Notes under the pieces: model-generated
What the model was told of the DNA's origin: nothing
What the model saw: the letters and a program-made list of their open reading frames with translations, nothing else
Databases searched by the model: none
Origin: Mesodorylaimus sp. YZB2_4
Lineage: Eukaryota; Nematoda; Enoplea; Dorylaimida; Dorylaimidae
Reading direction: 5' to 3'
DNA: 64,000 nt
Assembly: GCA_030248295.1 (NCBI GenBank)
Contig: JASANH010001361.1
Span: 1 to 64,000, forward strand
Program-made: the position numbers and the translations under genes
In this document: positions 25,176-63,458 of the stretch, one piece after another
How positions within the stretch are numbered: position 1 is the stretch's first letter
Layout: every line of letters begins with the position of its first letter

Positions 25176-25179
25176 CAGC

Positions 25180-27200: not shown

Positions 27201-27206
27201 CGAGTC

Positions 27207-30773: not shown

Positions 30774-30813
30774 GTTCTTCGATGACTGATTGAATTGGTG
30801 CACGTACTCGGAA

Positions 30814-30821
30814 ATTTATAA
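30814..30821 (-). promoter_or_regulatory. TATA box of the secreted SOD gene
   Basis: Minus strand reads ccttttataaatttcc, about 45 bases before the start codon at 30773, the spacing expected for a short 5' leader. Confidence 0.6.
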
Positions 30822-32885: not shown

Positions 32886-32933
32886 TTCCTTTGCCGACTT
32901 TAGCAGCCCATTGAGTATTGTTTAGTTTATGAA

Positions 32934-41716: not shown

Positions 41717-42814
41717 CTAATCAATATCATATAGCAAAGTAACGGTGGAGAGTGTGGAGGCCAAGGAAGTGGCAGGCGTCAATGGACTGCTCGTGCTAGT
41801 GATGGCTGAGGTGGAAGGAGATGTAGTCAGAACTGGGTGTTTAGTCGAAGTGGGGACAGTGGAAAATGACGAAGTAAGGGTTGATGCGGATGAACTTGCC
41901 GACGTTGATGATAAACTGGTGGTGGTCGTGGATAAGAAGAGCGTCAGAGAACCGCTAGTGCTACCCGTAGCAGTGGCTGACATGGTAAGTGGTGTTGTTG
42001 GAACTGGGGATGGAGTTGAAGTAGTATTTGTGGAAGTAGTAGTGCTTGTTGTGGACGAAGCTGTAGTACTAGTCAATGTCGTCGACGATGTGCTCTTACG
42101 CGTAGTAGACGTAGAAGTAGTTGTGGGGCAACCTGAGTAACATCAAGTTTTTTCACAAACCTAAATAAGCTGAACAAAACTCTACGGCATTAAAAGCTTC
42201 GATAAATTTCAACCATGACTCCTTTACCCCTTTAACATAAGCAGCTCCTCTAAATAAGCCTCTCGAATAGAGATCCCACTAAAATAACTATAAGCAACCT
42301 CCTGAGACCTTTTGACATCCAAAAACTCACTGCTTTTGCTGCATCTGCCTGGAGCGACGAGTTCAGGCAAGTAAAACGTTGTCTCCAAGGAATAGGTTCT
42401 ACCGCAGGCTGTGGTGTTATCCCCAATATTTGTCAGGTTGTCTGTCATTATGCCTTCACGAAGTATATTTGAGCCATATAGCCCAAAATAGAAGTAAAAC
42501 TTTTTTGAATTGGAACATAGAGGAGTTGACAAAACGTATCCAACCACTCCCATATATGTGGCAAAGATCCCATATGCCGAGCTCAAAAATTTGTTCCTCG
42601 CAGTGTCGCCGACGACAACAATGTCGAAAGGCGGCGTCCAAGCTGCGTCTTTGAAGTAGTAAATAGGCATGTTGCCGCTAACATTCGACGTGTACGCGTA
42701 GCCCCAATCACCCAATGCGCTGCTATAATTAGATTCCGGACTGACCTGGCTGATTGCAGAAGAAAAATGATGCTTGCAAGTTCTTGGTGAATATTGGTCA
42801 CCCCAGAAGGTAAA
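41717..42814 (-). CDS. Gene C: shared ectodomain exon plus mucin-like exon
   Basis: Exons 42814-42331 (phase 0 to 1) and 42132 to about 41717. The first encodes the cluster's shared domain: CKHHFSSAI, WGYAYTS, MPIYYFKD, GVVGYVLS, NILREGIM, final PGRC. The second is Ser/Thr-rich (TTTSTSTTRKSTSSTTL and onward, about 135 codons), a likely O-glycosylated stalk, and runs to a stop at 41717 with no membrane anchor. Phase and length match the homologous exons of genes A and B. A small upstream exon near 43,660-43,570 (TITQTPPGSGVGAGSPG) may belong. The 5' start and any membrane module are not found; the gene could be truncated. Confidence 0.65.
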
Positions 42815-42829
42815 CTAAAACAGGAATCA

Positions 42830-44240
42830 CATCGAAATTGAAATTGAATCTATTATTTTCCCTTATGCTCCGAAACTTCCTATGCCACATGCCACGACTT
42901 ATTGAAATGATAAGAATTCTGTCCCCCCGTTTTTGTCTCAGATTTTTACATGCCTTTTTAGAATTTTTACAGTATTTGTATTGATGTGCCCTCAACTGAA
43001 CGTTTTGACGCCTTGACTCTGGAATCAAGCTACATTACCTACTCAACGCTCGGGGCACTGCCGGTATCTGGGAGGCGATTCTGCGGATGTTCTTGTGGTG
43101 TAATATTAGGAAGGAGCTCTGTATTACTGTAGTAGCTATCGCGGAAGGAGCTTATCCTGATCTGGTTACCATGCGCGCTTTACAACTTCGTTGTCATATG
43201 AGTCTCTTTTCTTGTTCTACAAGCTCCAAAAGCTGGTTCTGCTGATGAAAACAGCGAGGGAGGTCTTCTACTTGTACGCGCAGTTCTTTTGCACTGATGG
43301 TTTGGAGCAAATTTTGTTATCATCTAGACTTTTCGTGTAGGGTATATAATTTGTGATGCAGAAAGGTTATTTACTTAAAAAAGACTACGTTTCATTTCTC
43401 TTCTCTTCTTAAGACTGACTATAGGGGTATGGAATATGCAATCTTCACACTGTATCTCACCTTTATTTGTGTCCAGTTGGTCCATAACAGGGAGCACGGA
43501 GCTTCAAGATCAAGCAAAAAAGACAACGAAATTTTGATCAACTAAAATATGGTGACTACAAAACCTTACCGTCCGTTGGATTAGCGGCTCCTGCTTTCGT
43601 CGGTGAGTTGAATCCAGGAGACCCTGCACCCACACCTGAGCCTGGCGGCGTCTGGGTGATGGTTAGCTGCCATAGAGCTACAGTAAATGAAAAGTTCCGC
43701 TTTACTACAAAGATGTAGCTCGGTCACCAGTCATGCTTACTGACGAAAAATAAACAAATTTTTGGTAATCTTATTGGTATCTCACACCACTGATGGTCGA
43801 CTCTTTCTAATAACCAATACATTTCCCAATCGTTGTCTACTTTGGACGAAGCTGCGTCTTACTATTCCTTGGGGACGCCCGCTCCCATGCTATTAGAATT
43901 ATAGCCGTAAGGTCGCTTAGATACTAAAACAGGTCTGGCAGACTCGCATTGTAGCTGCTTTGTTACACTTATCGCTGACATGACTGCTAAAAATCACTTT
44001 ATGAACAAAACGATTAAGCAACTAGCCAGATGAACTCACGACTCGCCTTGTCAACCACTGTAAATGGGCAACACCATTCGAAACAGCAGGGTTTCGAAAC
44101 TCTTACGTAAGATATACTTTACACTGCAGTAACACATAGCATGCAAACTTTACATTGTCTAATAAGTGGGGCCTATACATATATGATTACGTGATAATTA
44201 AGCTAGGTGTACTCGTGCCTATGAGATTACACAATGTACG
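42830..44240. other. Sequence upstream of gene C
   Basis: Apart from one possible Pro/Gly-rich linker exon on the minus strand (about 43,660-43,570, between ctgtag and gtaagg), nothing recognisable. Confidence 0.35.
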
Positions 44241-44249
44241 GAACAGCAA

Positions 44250-47200
44250 CAATGGCAACCTCACATCGAATCAAATGTACTCGGTGATCGAACGCACGAC
44301 CAAAGCAGCAATGAGAATGATAATTTATGAAGCGCTAATGATTCCAAAGTTGACAACGAGTCCAGCTGCGACGGCTACATTGTTCAGGTATGCGCTCGTA
44401 AATTTCTCCTGTTGTATTTTTGTGACTATGTCTTTTGATTCTCGAGTGTACTCTAATGTGTTTGATCAAAAGTAAAGATTGATTGACTGATTGAGTGAAG
44501 TATCTGCAAGAGCATAAACACGGCGTCAAATATGTGTCTGGCAGTTTCTAGGTACAGTACAGTAGGCTTGACTCACCGTATATGCCTCATATTCTTGGCA
44601 TGTATCTGCGGCAGTGCGCCATAAAACACTTCAACAAAAGGCAATGCTTTCTCAGCAATTAGTAATTTTCTCTGATCGAAATAAGTGCGCAGAATAGACC
44701 TGGCTCTTTATGAATACCTGATGTGCTTCCCACTTGCTTCTGGACTCGTATCATTTAGTCTGTGACATGCCCCGTTCTGAAAATCTAGCTTCTATAGCTG
44801 ATGAATGAAAAATTTCTCATAAACTCTTACTAAAATCATCGAGTTTGAATGCAATTCTGAAATGGAGGTTGTGACTTCATACCAATAAAATCCAAACAGC
44901 GTGAGAAAGTCATATCGAAATTTTTCGCAGAGTTAAAGTCGAAAATTTGTGGACTGACTCGCATGGGTCCTTGCAATCGCACGTTGTACTACGCATGAAA
45001 TCCTCCTCGCCACAAGTCATTACTCCCTACAATCAGACAACTGAAAAGTATATTCTTTAAGTCAGACGAATGTACATACTCCCTTTACTTCAAAGTGATA
45101 AAACTCGAAGAGCTTACAATTTCCAAGGCTACAAAATCGTTCACTTCTGGGTTTCGCATATCTTGGATCAGCGCATCCGCACTTGAATATAGCATATCTC
45201 TGGTAATACGGCCGAGCAATCCTGGATGTGTCAGTAATCGTATTGTGAACAAGCTGATAGGCTCAGTCAGTTTATTCGCCTTACTCCGCTCTATAGTCGC
45301 CCTCATAATAATAAAATTATCTACCAGGCTCCCTAACGCAGTTGTCGAGCTTGCTGTGAATAATCTGAATAACAATTTTCACTATTGATGCTTAAGACCC
45401 AGTTTCCTGTCTTGGAATTATGGCAAGGTTTTATCATCTCATCATTTTATCTGTCCCAATGCTACTTGAGAAAGCCCGACAAATATTTTACTTTCTTGCA
45501 ACGCTGCATCAAGCAAATTAAGCAGCTAGAATTCCAGAAATTTTATGGAAGGTTCTAGAAAGAGTTTTTATCTGCTTTGCCTGCTCATCAAGCAATGGGC
45601 AGCATACGGCCAAACTAAAAAGCTGTTGTCAGCAGCTACCTATGATCTGCGGCCGCAGTGGTCAGCGCTTCGGCATTCATACAGTATCGCGTATTGCTTG
45701 AGTGGCTGCGCTCGTCCAGGTGCGATCCCCGGGAAATGGGTTTGCGAGCCATAAACCCTCGCTGACCTTGCACGCCAGGCTGTGGGCGACTCAGCCAGTG
45801 CCGTCAAGGCGCTCCGAGTGGAGAGACGGACGCCAAACGAGGAGACACCGAGAGGGTTGACCACCCACCTGCCATTATCTGAGGAAGTCGGTCTCCAGTC
45901 CAGGATGCCCTCGTGTGGTGGTGTTCCTAGTGTGACGCACAGAGGGACCGCTGCTGTGTCTGCTGGTCACCTCAAGGGCTCTATCACATGACTGCTGGCA
46001 AGCTATAGGCAAAACGAGTTGGAAATCCCGTGGGAAACTGGGGCGGCGTGGGACCCAACCCACAAAAACTTTTTAAAAAAACTAATGCTTAGGTGTATTA
46101 TCTCACCTACTCAAAGTAAATTACGGAACGACCACCTTTCATCGTTTATTCACGCAGCAGTAAGCCTAGAGCCGAAACCTAGCGCTAGAAGAGTGGAGCG
46201 CAAACTAAAGCGTAATATCACTGGTTTCTCACAGCAGTCAAAAGGTCAGGTACTCGCGGTTTTCGCGACAGAAATCTAGCTATGATTTCGAGTCAGCGCA
46301 TTGCGGAAATCATGTATGCGAAGTTTACAGTATATTTGGCACAGTAAAAAAAACCAAAAAAGTTTTTTGTTGGTGGTGCCAGATTTCTTGTTGCTACAGT
46401 ATGGTCAAAGTTTATTTCGAAAATTGAGCCGGATAATTGGGAGTTGACGCACCTACGTCAGGCGATAATGAAGCTTTTCTAGTCCTTCAATCTATATGTA
46501 TATTGTGCTACGTAACAATTGAATCATAACTGCGACGGACAGCTTACGTGCACCCAGCTAATGTGTAGTTCAGCACTTACCCTTGTCATAACGACTGTTG
46601 TCAGTGCTCCAGGAGCTTCGCAAAAGCTATTAATTTCTGGAGAGCCAACTTTGACTGGCTCTGGAAGACTAAATCGAAACCCGGCAGAAGTTGATGCACA
46701 TAAGTATTCATCTTGGGCACTTTCCAATACCAAGGTCAGGCCTGGAAGCAGAAAACACGCATATGCTAACACCAAATGCTCTCTTTCCCTCCGTACCGTG
46801 GTGTCGGCCACTTTTAGCAGATGAGTTGGGTCATACTGTAGTTGAACGTGGAACAAGACCCACATGCAACAATTATGTTCAGTTGAAAGTTCGTTTTCAG
46901 GTACAAGTCATGACAAATGGCGATAATGGGATGCCAAAAACTATCAGCCCTTACTGCTCATTCAGACAATCTTCTTTTTCGAAGAAACATTTGACGAACG
47001 TTGTGGACCATAAATTACTGTCGCAGACTATAAGGTCGGGGCTCATGTCCACAAGTAGATATGAAAGCAAATAAATAAGGAGGGCATTGTTTGCGTTACT
47101 GTCGTTTTGAGCAATCTTAAAAAGCATAGTTCATGTGTGAGAAATACGTAGTTTGGGTATATATCACAAGTGGCACTTCCATACTCAATAAATTCCCTGA

Positions 47201-47280
47201 CCTTGTCATTAAGTGCAGCAAAACTGAACAAAGCTGTAGCTTCTGAAGAAGCTGAAATGGATGTACTTTTTTCCGCCTGC
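44250..47280 (-). pseudogene. Decayed DEG/ENaC module, paralogue of gene B
   Basis: Pieces match gene B exons in order. 47,027-46,955: TTFVKCFFEKEDC (gene B IVHCHYDQRPC). Ending 46,837: ACGSCSTFNY (gene B RYGSCYTFNY). 46,741-46,581: LTLVLESAQDEYLC, then SAGFRFS and APGALTTVVMTR (gene B YLCISQSAGFRLS and SPGTLTSIALYR), ending in the same phase. 45,221-45,118: QRYAIFKCGCADPRYAKP (gene B QRYALDNCNCADPKYAKP), but 104 bases instead of 106, so a 2-base loss shifts the frame and removes one conserved Cys. 44,387-44,250: membrane helix AAGLVVNFGIISAS interrupted by TAA at 44,327-44,325. Exons corresponding to gene B 9 and 11-14 are missing. A 370-base repeat separates the pieces. Confidence 0.7.
45640..46015 (+). 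repeat. Dispersed repeat, copy 1 (partner at 47,630-48,020)
   Basis: Both copies share ccttgcacgcca, gtgggcgactcagccagt / gtgggtgactcacccagt, ctccgagtggagagacgga, gaggagac / gagaagac, cccaccc/ccacct, gaagt...aggatgccctcg over about 300 bases. Inserted within the DEG/ENaC pseudogene. Confidence 0.75.
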
Positions 47281-47629
47281 AATTTAGGAACCTACGTGTT
47301 ATAGCTGCTACCGGGATGTTCAGGTTTTTGCCAGAGTACGTATCTGTCCGCAGTTGCATCTAGGTACGCTCTACATAGGCTCTACTGTACTCGTGCAGTA
47401 TGTTGAGTTTACGGGTGTTGACTGACGCCTACTCAACAGCGTAGATGACGAGGAAGTAGGAATCTTAGTTGAGGGTGAGGATAGTGGATAAAAAATGCAC
47501 TTAAGTGAAGGGAAAGGGTTAGTGCGGTTAGTAGGGGTAGGCGGTGGGTAGGGTTCGTGAACCTCTCAGCCTGCGTGAGTCAAGGAGGTTCAGCGTTAAA
47601 GTGAACTCTACCCTAGAGAAGCAAAGCTG

Positions 47630-48020
47630 CGGCCATGGTGGTGCAGCCTATCGCCGTGGTGCTGCAGCGGGTGGGCATGTCTCTCCTATTGCTTGGGAGC
47701 AAGTGGCTGGACTCGTCCCGGGATCGATCCCCGGCGATAGAGGTCAATTTGCGAATCATAAACCCTGCTAACCTTGCACGCCACGCCGTGGGTGACTCAC
47801 CCAGTACCGGTGAGACGCCACTCCGAGTGGAGAGACGGACACCGAACGAGAAGACAGTCGAACACGGACAAGGTCCGAAGCCCACCCGCCATCGTCGAAG
47901 GAAGTTACGGTTCAGGATGCCCTCGCGCGGAAGCTCCGAGTGTAGACATGCAGAGGAACGCTGTTGTGTATGTTGTCCCCGCACAGCCTTGCTTAGAAGG
48001 CTTGTCTGCTGGCCGGCTAC
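47630..48020 (+). repeat. Dispersed repeat, copy 2 (partner at 45,640-46,015)
   Basis: Same orientation as copy 1, with gggatcgatccccggcgatagag at its left side resembling a pol III B box (limited to its core gatcgatccc), so a tRNA-derived SINE is possible. Confidence 0.7.
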
Positions 48021-48029
48021 TTCGGCTCA

Positions 48030-48880: not shown

Positions 48881-48881
48881 G

Positions 48882-51800
48882 CTATAGAGCGGGCGCTTTC
48901 ATTTTCACGATTCCAATTTTTTTGTTTACGTGGTGGAAGGCGGGTAAACCCAATTCCAATAAAAGGATGAGTACTTCAAACACTGTGACCACGCACATGC
49001 CATAAAATAAACCGAGCACTGAGTTGAGCTCGGCCCAGGCGTCAAGCAGCTGCGTGAAAATGCATCCATCTAGTCGGTAAAATTACAGAAAACACTAGCT
49101 TACTGTAAATGCTGAATGTTCTTCAAAGTTGATTTCAGACAATCGACTGTAGAATACTTGGACAAATGCGAAAGTTTTCCTAGTCACGATTAAAAGTGCC
49201 GCGGGTGCTTAGTCGGACTTCACCTGAGTAAACTTACTCAATATATTCCTCGCACGCTCCATTGACTGTCAGATTTTGTTTTGCACGGTCGCAAAAAAAT
49301 CTCTGAAAGATACTTTAGTTTTACTCCCGTTCGCTCTACAGGTCTACTGTACAGTAGGAAGTCTCAAATCAGAGTTATACTCAGCGAAAGTTGAAATTTA
49401 AAGAACCAAAGGGTTCTTTGGTACAGTTTTTTAAAAACAGTACAATCGATTTTCACAATATCTTCCATTGGCCAAAGAGACTGCGACTGCTAGGTTCAGG
49501 GGATACATTCTTGTGAGGAACTTAACCGCCCTGTCATATTGACCCCGGCAATTTAACGGGCATACATGGGTAAGAGTGTCCTCCTAATAGTAGGTCCACT
49601 AAGGAAGAACTCTGTGCCAGGAATTACTCCGTTTTAGTAAGATATGAAAGAATCTCCTTGAAATAAGGCCACCCGAGGAAAAATTTCAGCATCAAAGCTT
49701 ACCAAAATCGTATTGTTCGTGTTTATTTTCGACATTGTGACCTCAGCTTGATAAGCCGTATTACTTCAAAGCAAAATACAATGCGAGGCTTGCTGTTAAG
49801 ATTTCACTCTTCTCACCTGCATGGTTCTTTGCAATCGCAGCTGACTTCTTTCAAGATATCCTCTTCCAAGCAGGTCATCAGGGTTCCCAGGCAAACCACT
49901 AAAAGTGATGGGACTATAACACTTGAGCTGGCAGATGAGCTGAAATGGGCTCACCATCTGACAAGTTGCAATATCGAGCATAATCTGGCTTGGCGTATTT
50001 TGGATCTGCACAATTGCAGTTATCCAGAGCGTATCGCTGATAACAGTCACGCAGGCAGCCCTAAAAGTTCAGTCGGGGTATAGGCGCGAGATACTGTATA
50101 GTCATAAGGGCTGAGCCTACTTCGACTGTGTATACTCCATCGTAGTAGTATTCCAAGCCTTCCTCAATGGCGGTTTGTGCAACGCAGTTCCTTAGACGTC
50201 TAATATTTCTCTGAAACAAAAACAGGAATTGAGAAGACGAATGTAGCACAACATTAGCAGGCACTCATTTTATTTCTTTTACTCGATAAAGTGCGATCGA
50301 TGTCAAAGTTCCTGGGCTGACATAAAAGCCACCAATTTCTGGGAACGGCGACTCATTCTACGGTTGAAGGCTCAGTCGAAAACCAGCCGACTGCGATATG
50401 CATAAATAGTCGTCTTGTATGTTTTGCAAAATAATATTCAAGCCTAAGCAGATATCTAAGATAGGTCGTGGAAATCAGTCCAGTCCATATCTGATTACCA
50501 TATTTAGGCCCAACATTACGAGACTTAAGGCTATTGGAGACATCGTAATTGAATGTGTAGCAGCTGCCATATCGGGCTGTCTGGTCCAGGCGGAATTCCC
50601 TAACAAGAATTCCCATAGAGAAATTTTCGATTAGGTGCACTGACACTCAAATCTGCACACAAAGGAGAGCTACAGTGGCTCAGTTGGTTGGGGCGTTGGT
50701 CCGCACTGCTTGGGCCAGCAACACTGACTTGAAGGCTGCAGTTTCTTGCTGGCTGAGGACGGCAGTTTAGTAGCCCGTTCTCTGAGTGGGAAGCAGCTTC
50801 GACGGCGTTTCAGTAAATCCATCAATTGCCCTACACATCTGGCTCTAACCGACTCACCTGGTATAGTCAAGTGGCTGAGACTGAATGAGTAGAAAATCAG
50901 GATAGATCAGGATCAGGCCCCAAAGCGCCCCACAAAACTGCACATAACTCAAAAAGTAACAAAACGTGCATGTATGGGAGTTCTGAGGTATTCTGCAATG
51001 TGCTCTTCAAACTTGATCTTCTTACCCTCCCATTTCGCATGGTCTCTGGTCATAATGACAGTGGACAATAGTTTCTTCTAATAAAACTCCAACTGATCTT
51101 TGTTCTTCGGCTGACAGTTGTACGTACATGTAAGGCAAGACCTCTTGAATAGCAATTGCCCTTGCTAATGGGTCATTCCCGGCAAGCTTGATAATAAGCA
51201 ATAAAAAATTCCTCACTAGCGATAAGGAGTATCAATGAGATGTTTACTTCAAAATTGATTTTATGAAGAAAGGATGGATCGACAGTGGGTGAAATTGTAC
51301 TTTCCGAAGTCGCCGTCGCTAAACCTTGAAAATATGTTGAACTCCTAACCCTGGGAAGCAAGATAATTTTACCCGTTTTAGAATAAGTGCTGATTGCAGA
51401 CATGGTCGTTAAGGGGTGCATTGAGAAGGTTGCAGGGGTGAATGAAGGAGTTGAATATGACGCAGTGTACTCAGATTCATTTGTAGGGTTAGTATTGTGA
51501 TGACCTTGTGTTGATGATCTGTTTATTATTGGAGACACAGCTGTACCAGTGACTGCTAAGCTATTTGTCGTCCTAGCAATGCTGATCAAACCATCAATGT
51601 TGGGTACCGAAGTGGTGAAAACAATTGTAGATAGTTCGATAGCTGAAATGATGCTGCCGCTGCTACTCGGTGTGCTTATATTGGTAGAAATAGTCCCCGT
51701 TCCAGTTGAAAAGCTTGCTGGAGCGATCGGCATAGTTTTGCTCGAAGATGAAAATGTTGACTTATTTGAATCAAGAGTCGATGTGCCAGTAGTTGAAGAA

Positions 51801-54800
51801 GCCGTCATGGTGGATGATTTAGAAGAACTTGCTCCAAATGCACTGATCAAACGGGAATCATCAGGGCTCTCCATACTGCTGTATGATACCAAAGGTGTGA
51901 GTGAGGGAGTGCTAGCTGGCTCATGAGTTAAACTAGCTATTGGCTTTGAAAGCAAAGTGGTAGAAATAGTTCCTGCAGTGTCATACGATGCTAAAGTAAT
52001 TAGGTTCGGGCCTCTATCAGTAGTCGATGTTTTTAAACTGCTGGCAGAAGTCTTTGATGTGGAATCTATGAGGGAGGGGGCCGTCGAGGAGAAATATAGT
52101 TCAGAGAAAGTCTTTGAGGAAGTAGCCATTGAGAGAGTGCCTGTTGTGGGATAGAATACTGTGGGTGAAGGCAGAGGGGCAAAAGCTGCTACTCGAGTAA
52201 CTGTTGTTAATGAAGACGTAGAGAAACCAGCTGTTGTGTGAAACGTTGTGGCTGGAGGGGCCACAGAGTAATGAGCTGTTGTAGAAGGAACCACTGAGGG
52301 AGAAGCTGCCATAGTGGGCGAAGCCACGATGGGAGAAGCTGTAGTGGGAGAAGCCGCAGTTGGAGAAGCCGTAGTGGGAGAAGCCGCAGTGGTAGAAGCC
52401 GTAGCGGGAGAAGCCGTAGTGGGAGAAGCCCCAGTGGGAGAATCCGTAGTGGGAGAAGCCCCAGTGGGAGGATCCGTAGTGGGAGAAGCCGTAGTGGGAG
52501 AAGCCATAGCGGGAGAAGCCGTAGTTGGAGACGCCGTAGTTGGAGACGCCGTAGTGGGAGACGCCGTGGTGGGAGAAGCCGTAGTGAGAGAAGCCGAAGT
52601 AAGAGAAGCCGTAGTTGGAGAAGCCGTAGTGGAAGAAACCTCAGTGGGAGAAGCCGAAGTAAGAGAAGCTGTAGTGGGAGAAGCCGTAGTGGGAGAAGCC
52701 GTAGTGGGAGAAGCCGTAGTAGGAGAAGCCGTAGTGGGAGAAGCCGAAGTAACAGAAGCCGTAGTAAGAGAAGCCGTAGTGATAGTGGTTGCTGCTTTAC
52801 TGCTTGAAGGAAGCACTGATGTGGTCATGGATAAAATGCTTATCGTACTGAATGCATCTGCAAAGACAGTAAGTTAAAACTGCAACGATGTTGATCAAAA
52901 TGTGATGAACGAAGCGTTACAGTTAAAAAATGTCCAGCAATTAATTTCTTATTGTTAGCTGGAACACTAAATGAACCAAGCTTTAATCTGTTTCTTTGAG
53001 AATATACACGCCATCTATGTTAACGCTTGGTGCCGCGTGTATATTCCGAAAGAAAACAGACAGTAGGCATGGGATGTCTCGAATCTTTGGCACCACAGGA
53101 AGTTTCTTCTACTTAATCTTTCAACCTCTCATGATGGCGCAGTTAGCGATACTTGTACTGAAGGTGCGTAATACGCTTCAACCATCAAGTGCAGTTCATA
53201 TAACTGTGGTTTCTGTGCATTTGGTGGAGTTCAGTGCAGATGCACCAAATTTGGCCATAGTCAGAAGACAGCTTGGACAGCGTCAGACTGAGTACGCTAG
53301 ACTAGTAACTGCTTTTAAATGTGTATCTATACTGTGTTACGCTGGATTTAAGTCAAGAAAAATGGCCCTGTAAAATGTGAAAGATATGGGAGTGCTTCTG
53401 GATACTACATACATATGTACGAGTATAAATAATTACCTACTGTTGAGAAGTCTTGGCATGATTAAAATGACCCTGAATTGGGTAACTCTGGTGATACTGT
53501 GATTCAGCCCTTCCTCGCCAGCTAGAACACAGGCACTGCTTCTTCTATTTCAGAAAATGCTTACTTCCAGTCAGGCATTTCCGACCATTTGATTCTTGAG
53601 GCAGATATATCATCGGGGTGCTCTGGAATGTATAAGTAAGGTTATAATTTGGCATTCCGCAGAACGAAATGCTGCTTTGGGAAGATGATGGAGAAATAAA
53701 CCCTTCGCGAATAATTCCAGTGCCGGTTTCAGTTCCCCAATATGTGTAGTAGACTTGTGTGGCTGCAACTGTTGCTGCTTCGAACCCATACCCAATAATA
53801 CCAACAAGAGTGTTATTGGTGGAGTTTTTAAGCAGAAAATCCCTCGACGCTGTACCAACTGCAGTCAGGTAAAATGGTGGACTAGCTAAATTGTGTTGGA
53901 AGTAGTAAATTGGTACCATGCCAGGTTGCGGCAAAAGATATGTGTATGCCGAGATGTAGTTAGAATCTGAAGATTCATATTGTTCCAAATCTTTTACATT
54001 CGCCGATGTGAAATGCAGTGAACATTGGATTATCTTTGTAGACGTATTGCCTCCAATAATCGCCGAAACGTTATGCTACAAACAGGAAAATAATGTTATA
54101 CTGGATCTCGAATCATTTTTTAAAGTTTTACTATGGCTGCATCCCACCTCTTTTTTAAAACAAAACCTACTGTAACGCCGAATCAAGCAGATTGAATCGA
54201 AGCAAAAAATTCTTGGAGGGAAACATTAGCACCCAATGACATAAGTACACATGTCTCTTCTCCCCACGATAATTTTATTACAAATCTTACCTGCCGGCTG
54301 CTTGAACAGCCAGTCTTGATCGGAGCACACGCTACTTCAGAGGCTAAAAAGACGTTTTCCTCAGTTATATCGTTTTTCTTTAACTAAATCAAATATTTAT
54401 ATATGACGAATCTGTTTTTGTAAAAACACATTTTGATTTTTTAAGCCAAAATTGCCAGAAGGGCTGGGTTCGGTTCACTGCCGTATGATTCAATTTGCGT
54501 ACCTATAATGCGTCCCTTCACCCTCTGGTACGCATGCGCATACTTTAGACTGAGGGGGCGCGCGTACCAGTATATCTATAGAACGTTGGTGTTACCTAAA
54601 GGATCTATGATATTCGTGCACTTTAACTCACCGTTCGCTGCACTGACTGTACAAACTGGACGATAGGGCTGGCTTGGATAGGTTGCGGCATCACATTTTC
54701 CAGTTGTTTTAAATTTGCAGTAGTTCGCCTTGCTTGCTATTTTCAGCTGGTCGCATATAGCCACTGACCAGAATTGCTCGTTACTGCAGTCTACGTCTTC

Positions 54801-56400
54801 TCCTGTATCGACTCGAAAAAGCGGAGTGTTCTGGTCGGTGTTTATGATGCCAACTATGGTGTCTTCTGAGCCGGTTTTCGACCTGAAATTGATATCGAAA
54901 CCCCACTAGTACGAGTAAATGCTGATACTGAAGATTGGACTTTCGTGTCTTTTGATAGAAAAGCAATTCATTTCGAATTCGAATCGAAGGTCCCTTAATT
55001 TTGGGCTTGTAAGGAAAGAGTTTCTTTTAGCTACTCTGCGCAGCATGGCAATGTTCAAGGCGCAGTCTTCAAAGAGAGGTAAAGAGAGGGTAAATTACAT
55101 GGTAGAAATCTGGGAGCATATAACAGAGTACAGGATGAAGATCTTTGAGAGTATGCTGGACGCCCGCGTCTGAGCGTCCGCATCCGTAGTAATACTCGCT
55201 TCCTGATGGAACGGCACCTTGAGAAAAGGGAGACAGTGCATGAGGCCTTCTTGTACATCGAATTCGACAGGGTGCCACACAACTTAATCAGTTGTGCCCT
55301 GTTTCAGCCAGCAAAATTCCTACTTCGGCCAGGTTTTCCTTTCGGCCAGAGTCCCCTTTCAGCCAGAACGCTGATTCGGCCAGTCCCGTTTCAGCCAGCT
55401 GTAGGTAGTTGCGGAAGAAAATTTAAGTATGTAACTAGCGCACCCAGGCGGCGGGAGATAGTCACGACCAAAGTCTCGGTGGGTACAACTGCTATAAAAG
55501 GCCCAAAAATTTTAGCTCGATGAGCAGCTACAGTGCCTGGCTGTCTGATGTGCTCAGAATCAAAGTGGATATCCACCAAGGTTCAGCGCTTTACCCGTTG
55601 CTCTTCACATTATTCATGGATACCGCCTGGCTGACACACAGCTAAAGCACCCACCCACGGACCCTGCTCTTGACCGACGATAGCATGCTGGCCCAGGGAC
55701 GCGCAGCGGCCTTCAAGGGCTGTAACAAAAGTGAGAGGACCGCCTGGAGGAGCACGGCACAAAAGCAAACGATGTCTGTGTGCAGTAATCCTCGCGCCTG
55801 GTAGGCAGGTCTGGGAAACGGCGACTCCTCGAGTTGATGTGTCAGCGGCAGGTATAGTCACAAGACTTGCCTTCGGTCAGAACACTCCCTCCCACTTACA
55901 CCACGCCTGCCAGGTTTGGTTAACGCTGGATACAATACAGAAGACACGAATAAGGAGAGACTAAAAGGTAAGTCCAATAGACACAGTAGACTGGAGAAAA
56001 TGGAGGAAAAACTACAGAAAAGTGGACTCGGCTTCGTGGCGGAACTAAGCGCTAGAAAAATGGCGACGATGATTGCAGACTGCGGAAAAGGCCGGGCGCT
56101 CTTCCAGTGAGTGAGGGCTTGAACGAAAAAGACTTACTTAACAAAATCAAGCATAGAACTAAACGATTCGTTGTCTCGTAGAACTGGTATCGTAGCTTCG
56201 TGCATCGCGCATTCCTTTCGGGCTGTGAGAAAATCCACATTGGATGACGATGATAAAGTTAAATTTGATGATTTAACATAAGCAAAACAGTAGTTTCCAT
56301 GTTGCTGGTACCCGCTCGGACATTGAAGGCTGGCGTACTTCAGTGCAAAAAATAACACTAAAATGCAAAAGTCAAAGTACAAGATTTGCATTTTGTCCAT
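48882..56400 (-). CDS. Gene B: lectin-like, shared ectodomain, mucin stalk and DEG/ENaC module; one in-frame stop
   Basis: Fifteen exons in agreeing phase: 56400-56138, 54882-54632, 54343-54291, 54075-53565, 52857-51248, 51186-51026, 50599-50499, 50455-50283, 50210-50121, 50060-49955, 49898-49817, 49763-49703, 49656-49628, 49179-49104, 49049-48882; 1,245 codons. Order: hydrophobic N terminus (ILYFDFCILVLFFALKYAS); C-type-lectin-like start (CPSGYQQHGNYC, TARKECAMHEATIPVL); shared domain (CSLHFTSAN, VPIYYF, VGIIGYG, IREGF); about 535-residue Ser/Thr/Pro mucin; then the DEG/ENaC ectodomain: IVHCHYDQRPC, RYGSCYTFN, GLNIILQN with SAGFRLS and PGTLTSIAL, GCLRDCYQRYALDNCNCADP, CDCKEPC, AYQAEVTMSK; finally a second helix (VLGLFYGMCVVTVFEVLILL). 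One codon in exon 8 is TAG (50360-50358). No classical TM1/HG motif; the GxS filter position reads GMC. Function unproven: channel-like receptor or non-conducting relative. Confidence 0.75.
50358..50360 (-). other. In-frame TAG within exon 8 of gene B
   Basis: The conserved frame reads FRLSLQP, stop, NESPFPEIGGF. The decayed paralogue reads FRFSLPEPVKVGSPEI at the same place, so the stop replaces a sense codon in a variable loop. All splice sites and every other codon of gene B stay open. Confidence 0.75.
50675..50830 (+). repeat. SINE-like dispersed repeat, copy 2
   Basis: gtggctcagttggttggggc resembles a tRNA A box; the rest matches 24,105-24,240. It lies in the intron between exons 6 and 7 of gene B. 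Confidence 0.5.
52310..52790 (-). repeat. 15-base coding minisatellite in gene B
   Basis: About 32 tandem copies of a 15-base unit (plus strand gtagtgggagaagcc), with scattered single-base variants. In the reading frame each unit encodes TASPT, giving an O-glycosylation-prone array. Because the unit is a multiple of three, copy-number change leaves the frame intact. Confidence 0.9.
55068..55715 (+). mobile_element. RTE-like non-LTR retrotransposon fragment
   Basis: In the first intron of gene B, opposite strand. Pieces of a reverse transcriptase in several frames: EIWEHITEYRMKIFESMLDA (thumb/palm start), KRETVHEAFLYIEFDRVPHN (the FxDxxxAFDxVP motif, here degenerate), and DIHQGSALYPLLFTLFMD followed by LLLTDDSMLA, matching the hQGSaLSPlLF and ADD motifs of RTE-type enzymes. 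Stops, frame changes and an inserted GCCAG-type repeat (55,298-55,400) show it is dead. Confidence 0.7.
55298..55400 (+). repeat. Dispersed GCCAG/TTTCAGCCAG-type repeat, copy 4
   Basis: tttcagccagcaaaattcc, ttcggccagg, tttcggccagagtcccc, tttcagccagaacg, ttcggccagtcccg in a row, splitting the RTE reverse transcriptase fragment. Confidence 0.7.
55780..55890 (+). repeat. Dispersed repeat shared with 23,960-24,065 and 29,080-29,150
   Basis: ctggtaggca...ctgggaa...cctcgagtt...tgtcagcggc...gtcacaagacttgcctt aligns with the SOD-intron copy in opposite orientation. It directly follows the RTE fragment and could be part of the same element's 3' region. Confidence 0.5.
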
Positions 56401-58705
56401 ACTCCATTTACAGCCTTACCGAGTACACGCACGAGAATCATGCCGGGTTATTCGAAACGGCTCAACACAAGCAGTCTGCCTTCCTTACGCGGATTTCTTC
56501 AGATCATAATCGTTCGTAGAAACAAAAATCAGCTCATGGAAGGAAGGCAAACAGGAACGTAAGCTCCTTCAATGTTGCAGTTACACCAACTAAGCCAATG
56601 CCAGCCTACACCAAACAGTTTCCGACGCGCACAACGCTTTGCGGATACTGTATGAGCAATCATGCATCCATCTTCCGCAATTACGAATTCCACTCGGGCT
56701 GTGGTACAAGTAGCTTTAAAAGGGTGCCCATTCTTTTCTATAAACCTTTTTATCATCCAATACCGGGCCTCGGACGCGCTAAGCAACGAATAACTTTCGA
56801 AAAGCATAGAAAGGGCGAGTTCATTTTGAAAATTCAAGCGAGTCTGACTTAGGAGCGACGCCATCAGACGATTCGATACGCATGGTACATACGCTTTAAT
56901 TTAATTTCCATACGCTGGCTGTTTCGCAAGCTGAAGTCTAATAAGGAAACTCGGCGGGCATCTCTCACTAGCGAGTTCTGGAGGCAAGGGAATGCTGTTG
57001 CAAGGGAGGGAAAAGAAATCTAATAGCAGACACATCCGCTCGTGAATATTGTGCCGACTGCCGAATTTTCAAAAAAAGTACTAACGATACTACCATAAAA
57101 GCGAATTCCGGCGTCCGGCAATTAAATGTTTACTAAATGATACTCGTATCTCCGTTGCCGATTAGGCCATGACCAACATGAGATTTTGGTTGCCATAGTA
57201 GATGAGGAATAAAGAGTAAAGTAGTTGGTCGCAAAATCTTCACGTAAAGCGAATACTCCTTCAACCAAATAAGACTTTCCTTGAATTTTCAGAAAGAAGC
57301 GACGCATACGCCGAGTGATGGGGGAATCGATCAGCACAAAAAATTTTCTTTTGAATTTTCCGCCCGCGCGGCACTTATGACATTAGAATTGTTTCGGCTG
57401 CTTACTCTAGAAATCGTGAGAAAATATATTACTTTCTCACTTTTCCACTATGTCAGTCTAATTTTGTACTGGAGTATCTGCCTTTCGTGAGAAAAAGAAA
57501 AGTTATCAATTTTCTGGCGATTTCAAAACCCAGTAGCCAACTATGCTCTTCTCTCATAAGCGGCACGCGGGCGGGAAATTCAAAAGTAGCGTCCTGCGGG
57601 CACTTCTTGCCGTATTGGAGTTTTCTCCAATATCTTGGGAAAAAAGATCGAATTTTGACGGGGACAGTATCATTTCAGAGCTCTTTTCAAGGGCTCCAAG
57701 ATAGGCTATTGCTAATCAGCGCGAGTAATTAACAGCTTAAATGGTTAATCATAATTTGCCAAAATTGCCGAACTGTGGTCGGTAGTGTGGAAATTAGAGT
57801 GGCTTTATGATTTTTTGACCCCAGGCTTCTATTTCAGTAAAAAACAGGGAGATCTGGCTTCTATAATTTACCCATAATCGATTATGTGCCTGATCACGGC
57901 TGATCACGAACGGTTTTTCGAGTATCTCATGAACGGTTACAGCTGTGGTAATTTTAAAAAAAATTTTAGATTCCCTGAAATGTAGCGGTCATTTTTGTAT
58001 TCTGAAAATTGGTATAGACCCCCAAACTAAGCAATTTATGAATTTTCGACCAAAAGTGACCCTTTTTAACATTTAAAGTTCTTTATTTCTATGTACTATA
58101 GGCATTTTAGAAAAATTTAACTTCCGCCAAGACAATCAGTTTTTTAAGAACTTTCGATAGAGCGTATAAAAAGGGTGTCAAAAAAGTCGACTGGCCAAGT
58201 ATATTCCATATGGGTCGAGTCTCTCACGATCAGAGACCCTCTCGTGATCCGATCAGAACCGCAGCCTCGTGATTCGAGCCGACGTCTCAATCGACTCCTT
58301 CATCAAGGTTAACTCTCGATTCCCGCGTCATCTACCATGAGGAAAGAGAGATACGTCATGTATTTGTTCAGATGCAACGTATTTTAGGCTTGCTTTTTCT
58401 TATTCGTACCACACAAAATTTCATTCTTACATACAGCACATTTCATCTTACTTGGGTGATTTAAATTTTAGATTATCGCATAGACCCGCATTATCAGCTA
58501 TTTTTGACGTGAAAGGTGCCAATATCTACAAAAGTTAGAAACACCATATCAAAAAGAAACCACGTGCACTACAGTGCACACACGTGTACTGTCGTGCACT
58601 GTAGTTCCAACGTGCCATGATGCATTCACAGTCGTACAGGTTTAACTACACAACACACGCTTGTCAATTGGGAAAATCATCTCTCTGATTTTCTGACTCG
58701 TGAAT
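56401..58705. other. Space between genes A and B, with a possible lectin-like exon
   Basis: A minus-strand frame, 56,864-56,529, encodes ASEARYWMIKRFIEKNGHPF and later SWCNCNIEGAYVPVC just before a stop, reminiscent of the middle and end of a C-type lectin domain. It lies upstream of gene B's start, so it would be the last exon of a separate gene or an eroded duplicate. I found no matching first exon. The rest (57,400-58,700) is A/T-rich with nothing recognised. Confidence 0.35.
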
Positions 58706-58709
58706 GTGA

Positions 58710-61700
58710 TTATATTCGACTTCGCAGCGCTTTCAAGAACGCTCTCGCCTGAAAAAATTTGTTAATATTATCACCATAACTTTTTCCTCTAATACGACGA
58801 TCTGATCTTCGCCAACCCATCCCCCGTCTGTACTTGACATTTACAGCGAGCGCCCACACTCACCTTCCTGTTGGCAAAAATATGATAAATGGAAATGAGA
58901 ATTCCCAATGCAATATTGAGTCCAAAGAGAATTGAGAAATACGAAATATTTTGGTAATAAATAGCAGTCACTGCCATAAACCAGGATGCAAATTGAGTGC
59001 TGAATACAAACGCTAGGCCAACTCTCGCCAACCTGAAACAGTTTCCTCCTTGTAATACCTTGATTTCGTGTTGGACGGGCACTGGTTACCTGCATGAATC
59101 GGCTGCGACTGATTTCGATGACGCGAGACCCTGGCCACTGGCTTCCAGTAAGACGACAGTGGACCAACCAATTATTGAAACAGGGATGAATGTTGCAAAG
59201 AAAACGTTGCCAGTCATGTTTAGCCAACATCTGCAAAACGGCTGCCTTTCACACGTGCAGATTTCAAATCGAATTAACATTTTGTGCGAAGGCAATGGGC
59301 GGTAGTAAATTTTACTTGGAAGATGGAAAAAAATGTACTGCAGGAGCTTAAAAAACAGGGCTCTTACGAGAACGTGGAGATCAAATAATTGTTAAATCTT
59401 GCTGCAGTGATGCCAGTTATTGCTGCCGGAACTCCTGGAAAAAGCGCGATTTTGGATAAGCATGGAAGTCGAAAAACACATTTACCCCATCCAATTGCAA
59501 TGCTTTTCTTTATTCCCAGAAATGTGTTATCACCGATCACGACCAGTCTGAGAACTGTGTAAATATGTAGTGATTCGATTAATTGGAAAGTGTACGTGAC
59601 GAGAAAAAAATATTGCAGTCCAGTTGCTGCCCATTTGCAAATAACCTGCAGTGAGGAATTCTAATCAGAGTTTCCCACTTTTTCTTATGGGTCTCATCTT
59701 TTACGGATTTGTATGCCTCAATTGGCTTGGTTTTTATAAGGACTTGTATAAGGAAGGGACACACTGAATATTTGCTAGACCTTTCATGCGGCAAAAAAAA
59801 TTACGCCTTATTAATCTGAAATTCAGTCAAAAGCTAAGAGTATAAACGCAGTCGAAGTTCATGATCTTAGTAAGAATGATGCTAAATCTGTGTCAGGTTC
59901 TGATTTTCTGCCTGAGATCTAAATAAAATCTGACCAAGGTCTCGTCATGGACTCAGGAAGTCTTTGTGAGAAAAATGGCGAAGATCTTTGTCAGGAAATG
60001 TCATGTAGATTGTCAGTCATGTGCACACAGTGTAAATGCGGCTCTGGGCCCTCTTTTTTAAGGTCGGGTGCTTTAAATTTCTGTTGGCCGTGGATGGTGA
60101 TTAGAGAATTCATGTTATCTGAGACAATGCTGATTGGAGCTCCATACTGTGACATTACCAAAGTGCTTTGTGTTCCCAGAGACAGTGTGCCATAGAGAGA
60201 CCCCATCAAGGTGCGGTTTACGCCAACTAGTCACATTATTATGCGACGAAAAAAAACGATTTGATCATTTGGTATTCTGGGCAAGGCGCATAAAAACTAG
60301 GAGTTTTGGAGTTCGGTGGCAACTATTGTGGACTTATAAACTATTGGCGCTGATCCAGGACTAATAACATACGATAAGCGCCAAACTGGTTTTTTAATCT
60401 GGTTTATAAGCCACCGTATGAGAAGTTAAGTGGCTCCAGCCGCGATTCGCAAATTGCATGAAGTTCCGAAGACAAAACTTACAAGGCTGTGCTTCTCGTC
60501 GTTTCTGGCAGCTAACAAAAATACCATAAGATGACCCAGGAACAGGCTTATGTCCTCGTTGAGATGTATAATAGGCAAGTAGCGTCTCGTCCTAAAAACG
60601 TCCAAATAATATTCTAAATTTCTGGTCCTGTGCTAATTATTCAGGTTCTCCTCAAATTAATGAAAAGCACCCAACGAGTAAATCTAACCTCATGTACAAA
60701 GATGCAGTAATCGAGATCCCGAGGGGGACCAGCAACCAAATACATCCAATGTCCATCATGTAGACCGAAGCAGTTTTTTCCACAGGGGACATGGGACTCT
60801 GAAAAGCGCGTAACATTGCAAGTAGGTCACTGAATCCAGTCAATCACTGACGCATTCTGGCAAATCGCAAGGCCCCATTTCGGTATTGATCTCCTCATTA
60901 ATCTTTCCGTTTACATCGTAGCGGCATATCTTTTGCCTGGCTTTCACAAAATGCGTGCACCCGTCGCAGGTGCTTGGCTTCCATTGAGTGAATTCGCAAG
61001 TTTCTGGAAATTAGGGTTCGTAATTTCGACCAATCACAGTTTAGATTGGCAGCGTACCTCGGGGATAAGTAGCAAGATGCTTGGTTATCGATGTCCTGAT
61101 AGCAGCCGAAGTCAGACTGGAAACTGTTGGTTGGGTGGACTTGAGGACGGTTGTGGGCGCATTAGATGTAGTGTAAAGAGTCACAAGGTTCAGGTTTGTT
61201 GGTTGGGGCACTACATCAACTGTTTGAGGCTGATTGCTAGTTGTGGGATCTTGGATAGCTGTAACTGTGTATGTCGAACTAGCTGTGGTGCCTGTGGTAG
61301 TGGCACTGCTCGTCGGTGAACTGCTCGATCTCGATGAACTGAGGGAAGGAGAGGGTGAGGTTGACTGAAATGGGGTTGATGAGACTTCAGTACTGGCCGA
61401 GCTCGCAACACGAGTGACGATTGTACTGCGAGGAGAGCTCGTTGTTTCGAGTGGTATTCTGGTACCTGAAAAATATGGTTAGTAGCTGTACAAACAAAGG
61501 GGCAAGTGACTCACTGGGACTTCCACTGGATGATTCTGTAGTGACTCTCGTGGTGGTTTTGGCAGCAATGGCACTACTAGTTAGTGGTATGGAAGAAGTT
61601 GATACCCATGGACTGGCGCTACTCGTCGTCACACCTGAGCTGTTTGCTGTTCTGGATGAAGGACTGGTACCCATGGTTACAGCAGAGTCAAGCGTGCTTC

Positions 61701-63458
61701 TAGTCGAGGTGAGTATTTCAGGGAGGCTCGTTGGGAGACGGGTGGAAGGACTTGTCGGAAGATGATTTCCTGTGCTGGGTGAATCAGGTGAAGACGAGCT
61801 CATGATTATGGTTGACGAACTTGTTGAAGAAGAAAAGAGAGGCTGCACAGTCAGAATGCTGGCGGTGCTTTTTGCAGAGGAGCTTAAGGTCACAGTCGAG
61901 GGGCTTGTTCCTGCAGTTTGTGAGAGACTAGCTGTGGAGGTAGTAAGGGTCGTTGAAGGGATAGTTGAAGTAGTGGGGGCACTGCTTGACGGGGATGACA
62001 TGACCACGTTCGAGGTGCTGGTTGTGGCGGTAGACAAACTGGCTCGAAAATCGGAAGTTGAAGCGCCGGAGATACTTGTTGGAACAAGGCTCGTGGTAGA
62101 CATGTCAGCAGTACTTGTTGTTTGTGTATTAATAGTTGCGGCGGTGGAATTTATTCCTGTGCTGGATGTGCTGATTGTCGACGGGCTCATGATAGACGTC
62201 AACGTGCTTGGTGTGCTTGGGCTGCTCGTGGTCGTTGTTTCCATAGTCATAGTCGTACTGCTAGTTGATGAAAGAGTGCTTGTAGTTAAACCGCTGCTTG
62301 TACTGGCTGCTGTTGCCGCTGTGTCACTTGTTGTTGTCGCTAAAAAATATCCAGTCGTCTTTGTTAGTTGTCTACTAACATTACTAACTGGCATTATCTA
62401 AAACCTGAAGCGAGCGAGCTACAACTTGGCCAATGGCCGTAGTTGCGCTTACTGACTACTGGAAGCGCTTCCTGGCTGATCATATACTGCAGCCAAGGCC
62501 ACATGCATTCACCAGGGGCATAATATATCGTGCTTGCCTTTAACTCATCTGCTCGACCAAACAACACCCTTTGAAACAAAACATAACTCCGTTGTGTCCA
62601 CATTCAAGGCCTTTCCCAAATATAACTACAAAAATATCCCAAGATTCAGCACGCTGTTTTTTTTTTGTTTTCATGTTGAGCAGAAATAGTAACAGTGACA
62701 ATATGAAGCCCCCACAAGGTATCAGAAAAGAGTCGAGTCGAGGGTGCAATGGGCCACATTGCCTTCCCGTTGCTACATATTACTTATTTTGCGTATTTTC
62801 TCAAAAAAAGACCCACTGGAGGGAGGCGGGTATTTTCTCTATTGAGGTCCATGAATGGGGGGGGGGGGGGTAAATCGATGTGGGATATATTTGTGGGTGA
62901 GCGTATTTTACAGGACAGAACAAAAGCTGCATTTCCAATCGAAAAATACAGTACCTACTCACTTTGTGGGTTAAAGTGGCAATATCCATTTCTGGTCATT
63001 GCTGTTGGCAGATAGATGACGACAGTATTTGGTCTCGAATAAATTAATCCAGTAGTGTTGCATGTGCTGCTATCCACTGGTGGAGGAACGTCGCTGTCAT
63101 GAGAGATGAATGCCTCGCGTATTTGGTTGAACATGGGATTATATCGCCACCACGTGTAGTAGGGTGTGGCAAATTCAGCCGGTGCTGCAAGCCCATAGCC
63201 TATGATTCCGATGAGTGAGTAGTTGGCTGTATCGCTGGATAAACTCTGCATCACATCAGTGCCAACTACAGCGAGGTTACTCGGTGGGTAGTTCTTGATA
63301 TTTTGCATATGATAAATGGGGACTGTTCTGTTCGGAACGTGAACAGTGTATGCGTAGGATAAATCTTCCAAATGTGTCGCATAGCCATATAAGAGAAAAT
63401 GTTGTTTGTTGGTTGATGTGAACCGATGAGTGCATGTGACAACGTCCGTTGATGTCCA
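58710..63458 (-). CDS. Gene A: shared ectodomain, mucin stalk, TSP1 repeat and adhesion-type seven-helix receptor
   Basis: Exons 63458-62963, 62387-61515, 61465-61058, 61003-60852, 60798-60689, 60591-60483, 59645-59486, 59434-59368, 59230-59130, 59081-58864, 58748-58710; 910 residues seen, 5' end unresolved. Order: shared domain (CTHRFTSTN, YAYTVHVPN, VPIYHM, GIIGYGLA, QIREAF, final GYC); about 420 Ser/Thr-rich residues; a TSP1-like repeat (CEFTQWKPSTCDGC ... ICRYD ... GPCDLPEC); then seven helices: DIGCIWLLVPLGISITASL; ISLFLGHLMVFLLAA; ATGLQYFFLVTYTFQLIESL; SIAIGWGVPAAITGITAA; VFFATFIPVSIIGWSTVVLL; FVFSTQFASWFMAVTAIYY; LFGLNIALGILISIYHIF. The Cys before TM3 (ICKWAA) and the ECL2 Cys (CWLN), adhesion/secretin-family hallmarks, are present. 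The TSP1 joins TM1 by a phase-0 intron with no GAIN/GPS between. The tail is 12 residues. Confidence 0.85.
61515..62387 (-). other. Mucin-like exon of gene A
   Basis: An 873-base phase 1-1 exon encoding almost only Ser, Thr, Pro, Ala and Val; unlike gene B it has no regular DNA repeat. Symmetric phase makes it freely insertable or skippable without a frame change. (Coordinates are listed from the 5' end on the minus strand.). Confidence 0.7.
62858..62872 (+). repeat. Poly-G run
   Basis: About 13 consecutive G in the intron between the shared exon and mucin exon of gene A; similar long G/C runs occur at 6,460, 8,107 and 41,283. Confidence 0.8.

What the first reader, a model, noticed from the sequence alone, without database searches (positions are those of the whole stretch)
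41717..63458. A receptor gene cluster that pairs one shared ectodomain with different membrane machines
Three neighbouring minus-strand genes carry the same exon (496, 511 and 484 bases; phase 0 in, phase 1 out) encoding a two-Cys domain with the signatures C-x3-F[TS]S, PIY[YH][FM], G[IV][IV]GY and IRE[GA], followed by a Ser/Thr mucin exon. Beyond that, gene A continues into a TSP1 repeat and a complete adhesion-type seven-helix core, while gene B continues into a DEG/ENaC ectodomain and helix. I know of no described family where one extracellular sensor-plus-mucin cassette is coupled in tandem genes to a GPCR in one and an ENaC-type module in the other. Identical exon phases suggest exon shuffling after tandem duplication. 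A plausible role (inference) is detection of the same kind of ligand by metabotropic and ionotropic outputs.
Basis: partly seen in the sequence, partly recalled or inferred. Interest (0 to 1): 0.9.

Follow-up and report, generated by a model that had tools for sequence, protein, structure and literature searches.

The report
Lectin receptors with swapped membrane ends
In what looks like a roundworm genome, neighbouring genes share the same outer part (a lectin-type domain, a domain with no known relative in the libraries searched, and a long sugar-coated stalk) but end in different membrane parts, in one case a G-protein-coupled receptor and in others a piece of a sodium-channel protein that seems to have lost half of its membrane anchor.

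Summary
The three homologous exons are real (496, 511, 484 bases; phase 0 in, 1 out; 27-36% identity; E 2e-15 and 1e-9 genome-wide). Gene A splices over 11 exons to a stop: shared domain, mucin, TSP1-like exon, secretin-type 7TM. Two lectin-type exons and a 50-base linker exon precede it, partly beyond the window. Gene B has lectin-type exons, shared domain, mucin, then a DEG/ENaC ectodomain and second helix. Elsewhere in the same 145 Mb genome the chain lectin-shared domain-mucin-ENaC recurs (5 of 8 units in 60 kb of contig C17; B and, with a broken shared domain, B' on C215), and a second shared-domain 7TM gene lies on C2. The ENaC part matches Pfam from position 146 of 455; no first helix was found and the pore motif is changed. 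No GPS was found in the 7TM genes tested. Gene B carries an in-frame stop. A modular lectin-mucin receptor family with exchangeable membrane ends is well supported by gene structure; a channel output is not. No RNA evidence; function inferred.

The parts
62963..63458 (-). Gene A shared-domain exon (496 nt, phase 0 in, 1 out)
63710..63759 (-). Gene A 50-nt linker exon, same length and phase as the linker exon modelled in C17 units U1, U2 and U3
   Evidence: program model
61515..62339 (-). Gene A mucin exon 1 (825 nt, phase 1)
61058..61465 (-). Gene A mucin exon 2 (408 nt)
60852..61003 (-). Gene A TSP1-like exon (by eye; no Pfam hit)
58710..60798 (-). Gene A 7TM core, 7 exons (60798-60689, 60591-60483, 59645-59486, 59434-59368, 59245-59090, 59032-58864, 58748-58710), stop at 58710
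   Evidence: PF00002 E 3.3e-14
56138..56337 (-). Gene B first lectin-type exon (upstream end uncertain)
54632..54905 (-). Gene B second lectin-type exon
53565..54075 (-). Gene B shared-domain exon (511 nt)
51373..52857 (-). Gene B mucin exon (program model)
51248..51324 (-). Gene B small link exon between mucin and ENaC part (phase 1 in, 0 out; program model)
51026..51186 (-). Gene B first ENaC exon (no TM1)
49703..50599 (-). Gene B ENaC ectodomain exons
50358..50360 (-). In-frame stop codon inside a gene B ENaC exon
48885..49049 (-). Gene B second ENaC transmembrane helix (TM2) and tail
45116..47094 (-). Second, degenerate ENaC copy between genes B and C
42331..42814 (-). Gene C shared-domain exon (484 nt)
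41720..42142 (-). Gene C mucin open frame, runs to a stop

Best explanation
The locus is part of a large modular receptor family of a nematode-like animal. Each gene of the subfamily encodes a C-type-lectin-like domain, the shared beta-rich domain, a long Ser/Thr mucin stalk, and then one of two membrane ends: (i) an optional TSP1-like exon and a secretin-type 7TM core without GAIN/GPS, or (ii) a DEG/ENaC ectodomain with its second helix only, i.e. a single-pass type I protein. Shown by sequence: the exon chains, phases and recurrence, and that TM1 and GPS were looked for and not found. Inferred: a signal peptide (not pinned in any unit), single transcripts, surface display, and function. Most likely working: the lectin and shared domain bind a glycan or glycoprotein ligand at the tip of a stiff glycosylated stalk; the 7TM version signals through G proteins without GPS autoproteolysis; the ENaC version uses the ENaC ectodomain as a probably trimeric, largely non-conducting receptor or accessory subunit.
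For: Gene A splices through 11 GT-AG exons in agreeing phases to a stop. Lectin-type exons, shared domain and ENaC lie in one order and strand in 5 of 8 C17 units (U1, U2, U3, U4, U6) and in B; B' has it with a broken shared domain. ENaC exon sizes and phases recur: U1 and U4 show 158/161, 101, 161, 81, 106, 82, 61, other units parts of this series. A small exon (phase 1 to 0) joins mucin to ENaC in 5 of 7 modelled units (U2, U3, U6, B, B'); in U1 and U4 the mucin exon joins directly. Pfam ASC 5e-49 (U1) and 1e-36 (U4) from position 146 of 455; Lectin_C 2.8e-7 for U1. Second shared-domain 7TM gene on C2 (PF00002 2.7e-17). On contig C441 two of three ENaC places and one 7TM gene lie behind Pfam lectin domains, all on one strand. 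Between B and B', dN/dS is 0.19-0.21 in the lectin exons, 0.08-0.27 in ENaC exons with both kinds of change, 0.23 in TM2.
Against: No RNA. Tandem duplication of a two-gene block would also repeat the order. Gene B has an in-frame stop and B' a broken shared domain, so of A, B and B' only A is intact. Gene models outside gene A come from a home-made splice program trained partly on gene A itself; in its first test it missed gene A's TSP1-like and TM1 exons, and its models contain doubtful small exons. Gene A's joined lectin exons score just under the Pfam cut-off (21.7 against 22.6 bits); B's first lectin exon alone gets no Lectin_C hit. TM2 was seen in 6 of 8 ENaC units scanned (U2 and U4 lack it). 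Pfam lectins lie within 12 kb upstream of 4 of 87 ENaC places, but also within 12 kb downstream of 3 of 87, all three on the C441 array. Only one relative outside this assembly was found.
Confidence: 0.75

Rival explanations
1. Two separate genes per unit: a secreted lectin-shared domain-mucin protein, followed by an ENaC gene (or 7TM gene), repeated as blocks by tandem duplication.
For: The order would be repeated by block duplication alone; no transcript was available. In U3 the mucin frame, if read past the model's donor, runs into a hydrophobic stretch and a stop.
Against: No TM1-like segment precedes the ENaC part in 7 of 8 loci scanned (none in any frame in 6, out-of-frame ones in B; the eighth, U3, is ambiguous as told); the modelled mucin and first ENaC exons lie under 1 kb apart and in 5 of 7 units are joined by a small exon in agreeing phase; two loci picked because no Pfam lectin lies near them also have a Ser/Thr-rich frame straight in front of the ENaC exon; in gene A mucin, TSP1-like exon and 7TM join with agreeing phases.
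Confidence: 0.13
2. The ENaC version is a real ion channel: TM1 lies in an unfound N-terminal exon (a signal-peptide-like helix acting as an uncleaved anchor), or is supplied by partner subunits.
For: Ectodomain and TM2 show dN/dS well under 1 between B and B'. The true first exons of the units were not pinned. In B a hydrophobic stretch after an ATG at 56400 runs in frame into the lectin exon.
Against: In B' the frame of that stretch has a stop, so it may be intron. The profile match starts at position 146 of 455 in both units tested; none of the six TM2 segments seen keeps G-x-S (SFG, NVG, SFN, NIS, GMC twice; by eye, U1 also aligned).
Confidence: 0.2
3. Gene B (and the ENaC units of this contig) are decaying pseudogenes, so that no working metabotropic/ionotropic pair exists in the window.
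For: In-frame stop in B; two TGA in the shared domain of B'; degenerate ENaC copy 47094-45116.
Against: The exons after the stop still show dN/dS 0.29 pooled over 164 codons, though part of that is a near-identical tract; the shared-domain and ENaC3 exons of U1, U2, U3, U4 and U6 have no stop.
Confidence: 0.4

Closest known systems
EGF-TM7 / ADGRE adhesion GPCRs (mucin-like stalk receptors)
   Same: N-terminal binding modules on a mucin-like stalk in front of a secretin-type 7TM
   Different: Lectin-like and shared domain instead of EGF; no GAIN/GPS found. The ADGRE layout is recalled; 'mucin-like hormone receptor' was seen only as a reference title
C. elegans EGAS-1 to -4 (EGF plus ASC domain ion channels)
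   Same: Nematode DEG/ENaC proteins with an extra extracellular module (name and its meaning seen as a passage of PMC10424705)
   Different: Lectin, shared domain and mucin instead of EGF; TM1 not found here; EGAS topology was not checked
Polycystin-1 (atypical adhesion GPCR with a channel-like membrane part)
   Same: Large extracellular part joined to a hybrid membrane part (PMC9829181 passages)
   Different: One 11-helix protein with GAIN/GPS, not two sets of genes that share a cassette
ASIC1 / ENaC
   Same: Ectodomain from the finger onward (name of the part recalled) plus TM2: E 2e-23 to alpha-ENaC, 1e-20 to ASIC1
   Different: Nothing matches before chain position 169 of 527 of ASIC1 (6ave): cytosolic N terminus and TM1 missing; G-x-S replaced

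Membership tests
Adhesion GPCR (class B2) | secretin-type 7TM core | tested here: met
   PF00002 E 3.3e-14 (gene A) and 2.7e-17 (C2 gene)
Adhesion GPCR (class B2) | GAIN domain with GPS in front of TM1 | tested here: not met
   18 residues between TSP1-like exon and TM1 in gene A; no GPS or GAIN hit in the pieces scanned; 9 GPS places over cut-off in the genome, none on C215, C39, C83, C62, C441 or C76, and the one on C2 lies 307 kb from the C2 gene
DEG/ENaC channel subunit | ASC ectodomain | tested here: met
   PF00858 5.1e-49 (U1) and 1e-36 (U4)
DEG/ENaC channel subunit | two transmembrane helices, TM1 at the N terminus | tested here: not met
   match begins at profile position 146 of 455, 33 and 41 residues into pieces that start at the first ENaC exons; upstream is mucin, with no in-frame hydrophobic segment in 7 of 8 loci, U3 ambiguous; the true first exons were not pinned
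DEG/ENaC channel subunit | G-x-S selectivity motif in TM2 | tested here: not met
   SFG (U1), NVG (U3), SFN (U6), NIS (U7), GMC (B, B'), by eye; U1 also in the HMMER alignment; TM2 not seen in U2 and U4
C-type lectin domain, C17 unit U1 | Pfam Lectin_C over its curated cut-off | tested here: met
   31.7 bits against 22.6, profile 2-106 of 107
C-type lectin domain, window genes A and B | Pfam Lectin_C over its curated cut-off | tested here: inconclusive
   gene A joined exons 21.7 bits, just under 22.6; gene B first exon alone no Lectin_C hit, its joined exons were not scanned; both match the lectin-exon profiles built from B and C17 copies
EGAS (EGF plus ASC) | EGF-like repeats | tested here: inconclusive
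   no EGF hit in the pieces scanned, but not every exon was scanned
DUF5648 | profile homology of the shared domain | tested here: inconclusive
   hhalign E 0.36 (probability 0.2), or 0.068 (0.8) after leaving out L035, against at most 0.6 in 60 shuffles; no shared-domain copy among 12 PF18885 places
C-terminal domain of aegerolysin-L (9uj0) | same fold as the shared domain | tested here: inconclusive

The most novel reading that the evidence does not exclude
A lineage of nematodes has built a combinatorial surface-receptor system: lectin-type sensor cassettes on mucin stalks are swapped, by phase-matched exons inside tandem arrays, between a G-protein 7TM end and a single-pass end made from a DEG/ENaC subunit that lost its first helix and pore motif. 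The same sensor thus gets two unlike outputs, and an ion-channel family has been turned into a family of non-channel receptors.
Probability: 0.5. Interest if true: 0.85.

Novelty: new variant of a known kind. Interest (0 to 1): 0.72.

Why it matters
If confirmed by RNA, it is a natural case of sensor modules exchanged between GPCRs and channel-derived proteins, and a test of whether an ENaC ectodomain can work without TM1 and the G-x-S pore. It also points to large receptor expansions in a nematode-like animal: 45 places that match gene A's TM6-TM7 exon (my hand count of the rows, long single-frame matches left out; 125 of 179 candidates were scored) and 87 that match one ENaC exon (broken copies included). 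For C. elegans 3 adhesion GPCRs (PMC13197933 passage) and 30 DEG/ENaCs (PMC10424705 abstract start) are reported; exon matches and gene counts are not strictly comparable.

Tried and rejected
My own first reading, that the ENaC part of gene B has its own first exon with TM1 near 51050, was wrong: those letters are an out-of-frame reading of the first ENaC exon, as the conserved exon in the C17 units shows. DUF5648 as the identity of the shared domain looked good by eye but failed the profile test. No PDB sequence relative of the shared domain (best E 0.12). Pfam: no hit for the three window copies; of 10 copies scanned, four unrelated families each matched one member, best E 0.005. A search for relatives through U4's ENaC part found none at E 1e-5 among 633 candidates of similar length; the two shared-domain searches found only P0001, so the spread among species is unknown. 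A Pfam-lectin proximity test was weak: 4 of 87 ENaC places have a Pfam lectin within 12 kb upstream on the same strand, against 0.23 expected by uniform placement, but 3 of 87 have one within 12 kb downstream (all on C441) and 0 on the other strand; Pfam misses the divergent lectins of C215 and C17, and only 150 of 233 lectin candidates were scored. The intended control, a genome search for PF00858 to see canonical genes with TM1, did not complete. The shared-domain tree has 2 of 7 inner branches well supported and cannot say whether the 7TM link arose once or twice. 'Nematode' rests on 27 PF01060 places and on recalled family knowledge; the species is unknown.

Full report
Observation. The three exons are there at the stated places and lengths, and their likeness is not chance. 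Each has AG before and GT after, and with phase 0 in leaves in phase 1. The motif IRE[GA] fails in copy C (LREG); the other three hold in all copies.

Gene A. Spliced by hand, 11 exons with GT-AG ends and agreeing phases lead from the shared domain at 63458 to a stop at 58710, 897 codons counting the stop. A home-made splice program, whose codon table was trained partly on gene A, found the same two mucin exons in its first test but missed the TSP1-like and TM1 exons. The last 269 residues match the secretin-type 7TM family (E 3.3e-14). The TSP1-like exon is a reading by eye. No GPS or GAIN was found: 18 residues separate the TSP1-like exon from helix 1, and the 9 GPS places over cut-off in the genome lie elsewhere. 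Beyond the window, C215:65452-65245 and 64427-64168 hold two lectin-type exons, and 63759-63710 the 50-base linker exon. Joined, the lectin exons give Lectin_C at 21.7 bits, just under the cut-off of 22.6.

Gene B. It has two lectin-type exons, the shared domain, a 1.5 kb mucin exon, a small link exon, then ENaC exons to TM2 (program models apart from the shared domain). Its first exon is not pinned: a hydrophobic stretch after an ATG at 56400 is in frame with the lectin exon, but the same stretch has a stop in B'. A TAG at 50360-50358 interrupts an ENaC exon. The copy B' (C215:84-68.5k) has a sense codon there but a broken shared domain with two TGA. Between B and B', dN/dS is 0.19 and 0.21 in the lectin exons, 0.08-0.27 in the ENaC exons with both kinds of change, and 0.23 in TM2 (two exons have no synonymous change and give no ratio, one of them read in another frame). 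The exons at 50210-49703 are nearly identical between the two (dS 0 to 0.11, against 0.3-1.0 in the other ENaC exons), which suggests gene conversion.

Recurrence. The own genome (145 Mb, 1067 contigs) shows the shared domain on three contigs: C215, C17 and C2 (9 matches, 11). In the 60 kb of C17 fetched, 5 of 8 units have lectin exons, shared domain and ENaC in one order and strand (U1, U2, U3, U4, U6); of the other three, U5 has lectin exons and a broken shared domain without ENaC, U7 lectin and ENaC without the shared domain, U8 a degenerate ENaC alone. On C2 one gene runs lectin-like exons (weak, E 0.038), linker (by eye), shared domain with a proline-rich insert, mucin, 7TM. On C441 two of three ENaC places and one 7TM gene lie on one strand behind Pfam lectin domains; no shared domain was listed there. 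A C1 unit has lectin exons, mucin and ENaC without the shared domain. A C39 7TM gene has a 3.4 kb mucin exon, a TSP1-like exon and 7TM, with an N-terminal open frame that looks lectin-like by eye but gets no Pfam hit. So the pairing in the window is one case of a wider pattern.

One gene or two. I found no first exon of their own for the ENaC exons. The ASC match starts at profile position 146 of 455 in both units tested, and at chain position 169 of ASIC1 (6ave) for U1. In 8 loci, between shared domain (for C10 and C233, the fetched part of the mucin) and the ENaC part, 6 have no hydrophobic segment at or over 1.7 in any minus-strand frame; B has two, out of frame with the mucin; U3 has one where the mucin frame is read past the modelled donor into a stop. 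Along the spliced models from the lectin exons on, U1, U2, U4, U6 and B have no such segment before the ENaC part. A small exon, phase 1 in and 0 out, links mucin to ENaC in U2, U3, U6, B and B' (5 of 7 modelled units). Two ENaC loci picked because no Pfam lectin lies near (C233, C10) also have a Ser/Thr-rich frame straight before the ENaC exon. This favours single fused genes, but without RNA it is an inference, and block duplication alone could repeat the order.

Working. Lectin and shared domain on a mucin stalk suggest contact with glycans or surfaces. The 7TM end should signal through G proteins, without GPS cleavage. The ENaC end, if it is a single-pass protein with a changed pore motif, is more likely a receptor or accessory subunit than a channel. 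All of this paragraph is inference.

Known. Papers: PMC10424705, PMC13197933, PMC10148893 and PMC9829181 were seen as passages, all others as search listings with abstract starts. Six searches of the open-licence library bear on novelty; each listed 4 to 15 papers, only part of those that matched. None of the listed titles and abstract starts speaks of lectin-mucin-ENaC genes or of a cassette shared by 7TM and ENaC genes. Most subscription papers are not held.

Noticed in passing
window 23469-32921 (-): Four open frames with Cu/Zn superoxide dismutase matches (PF00080), one with a long poly-proline stretch.
   Followed up: partly
window 19186-19818 (+): C9orf72-like match, E 5e-6, just under the curated cut-off.
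   Followed up: no
window 27417-28040 (-): Metallophosphatase match (PF00149 2.2e-18); protein-phosphatase-1 type by eye.
   Followed up: no
C215:50210-49703 and 70019-69518: Near-identical ENaC exons of B and B' between more diverged ones, as if by gene conversion.
   Followed up: partly
C39, C83, C62, C589 and others: 45 places that match gene A's TM6-TM7 exon, counted by hand in the list; no GPS place over cut-off lies on their contigs except C2, 307 kb away.
   Followed up: partly
L042, L043 (C233, C10): ENaC exons straight behind Ser/Thr-rich frames of 712 and 1194 residues, no TM1-like segment in between: TM1-less mucin-ENaC genes may be common here.
   Followed up: partly
window 45640-45966 and 47613-48026: Two open frames that look alike by eye, perhaps a dispersed short repeat.
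   Followed up: no
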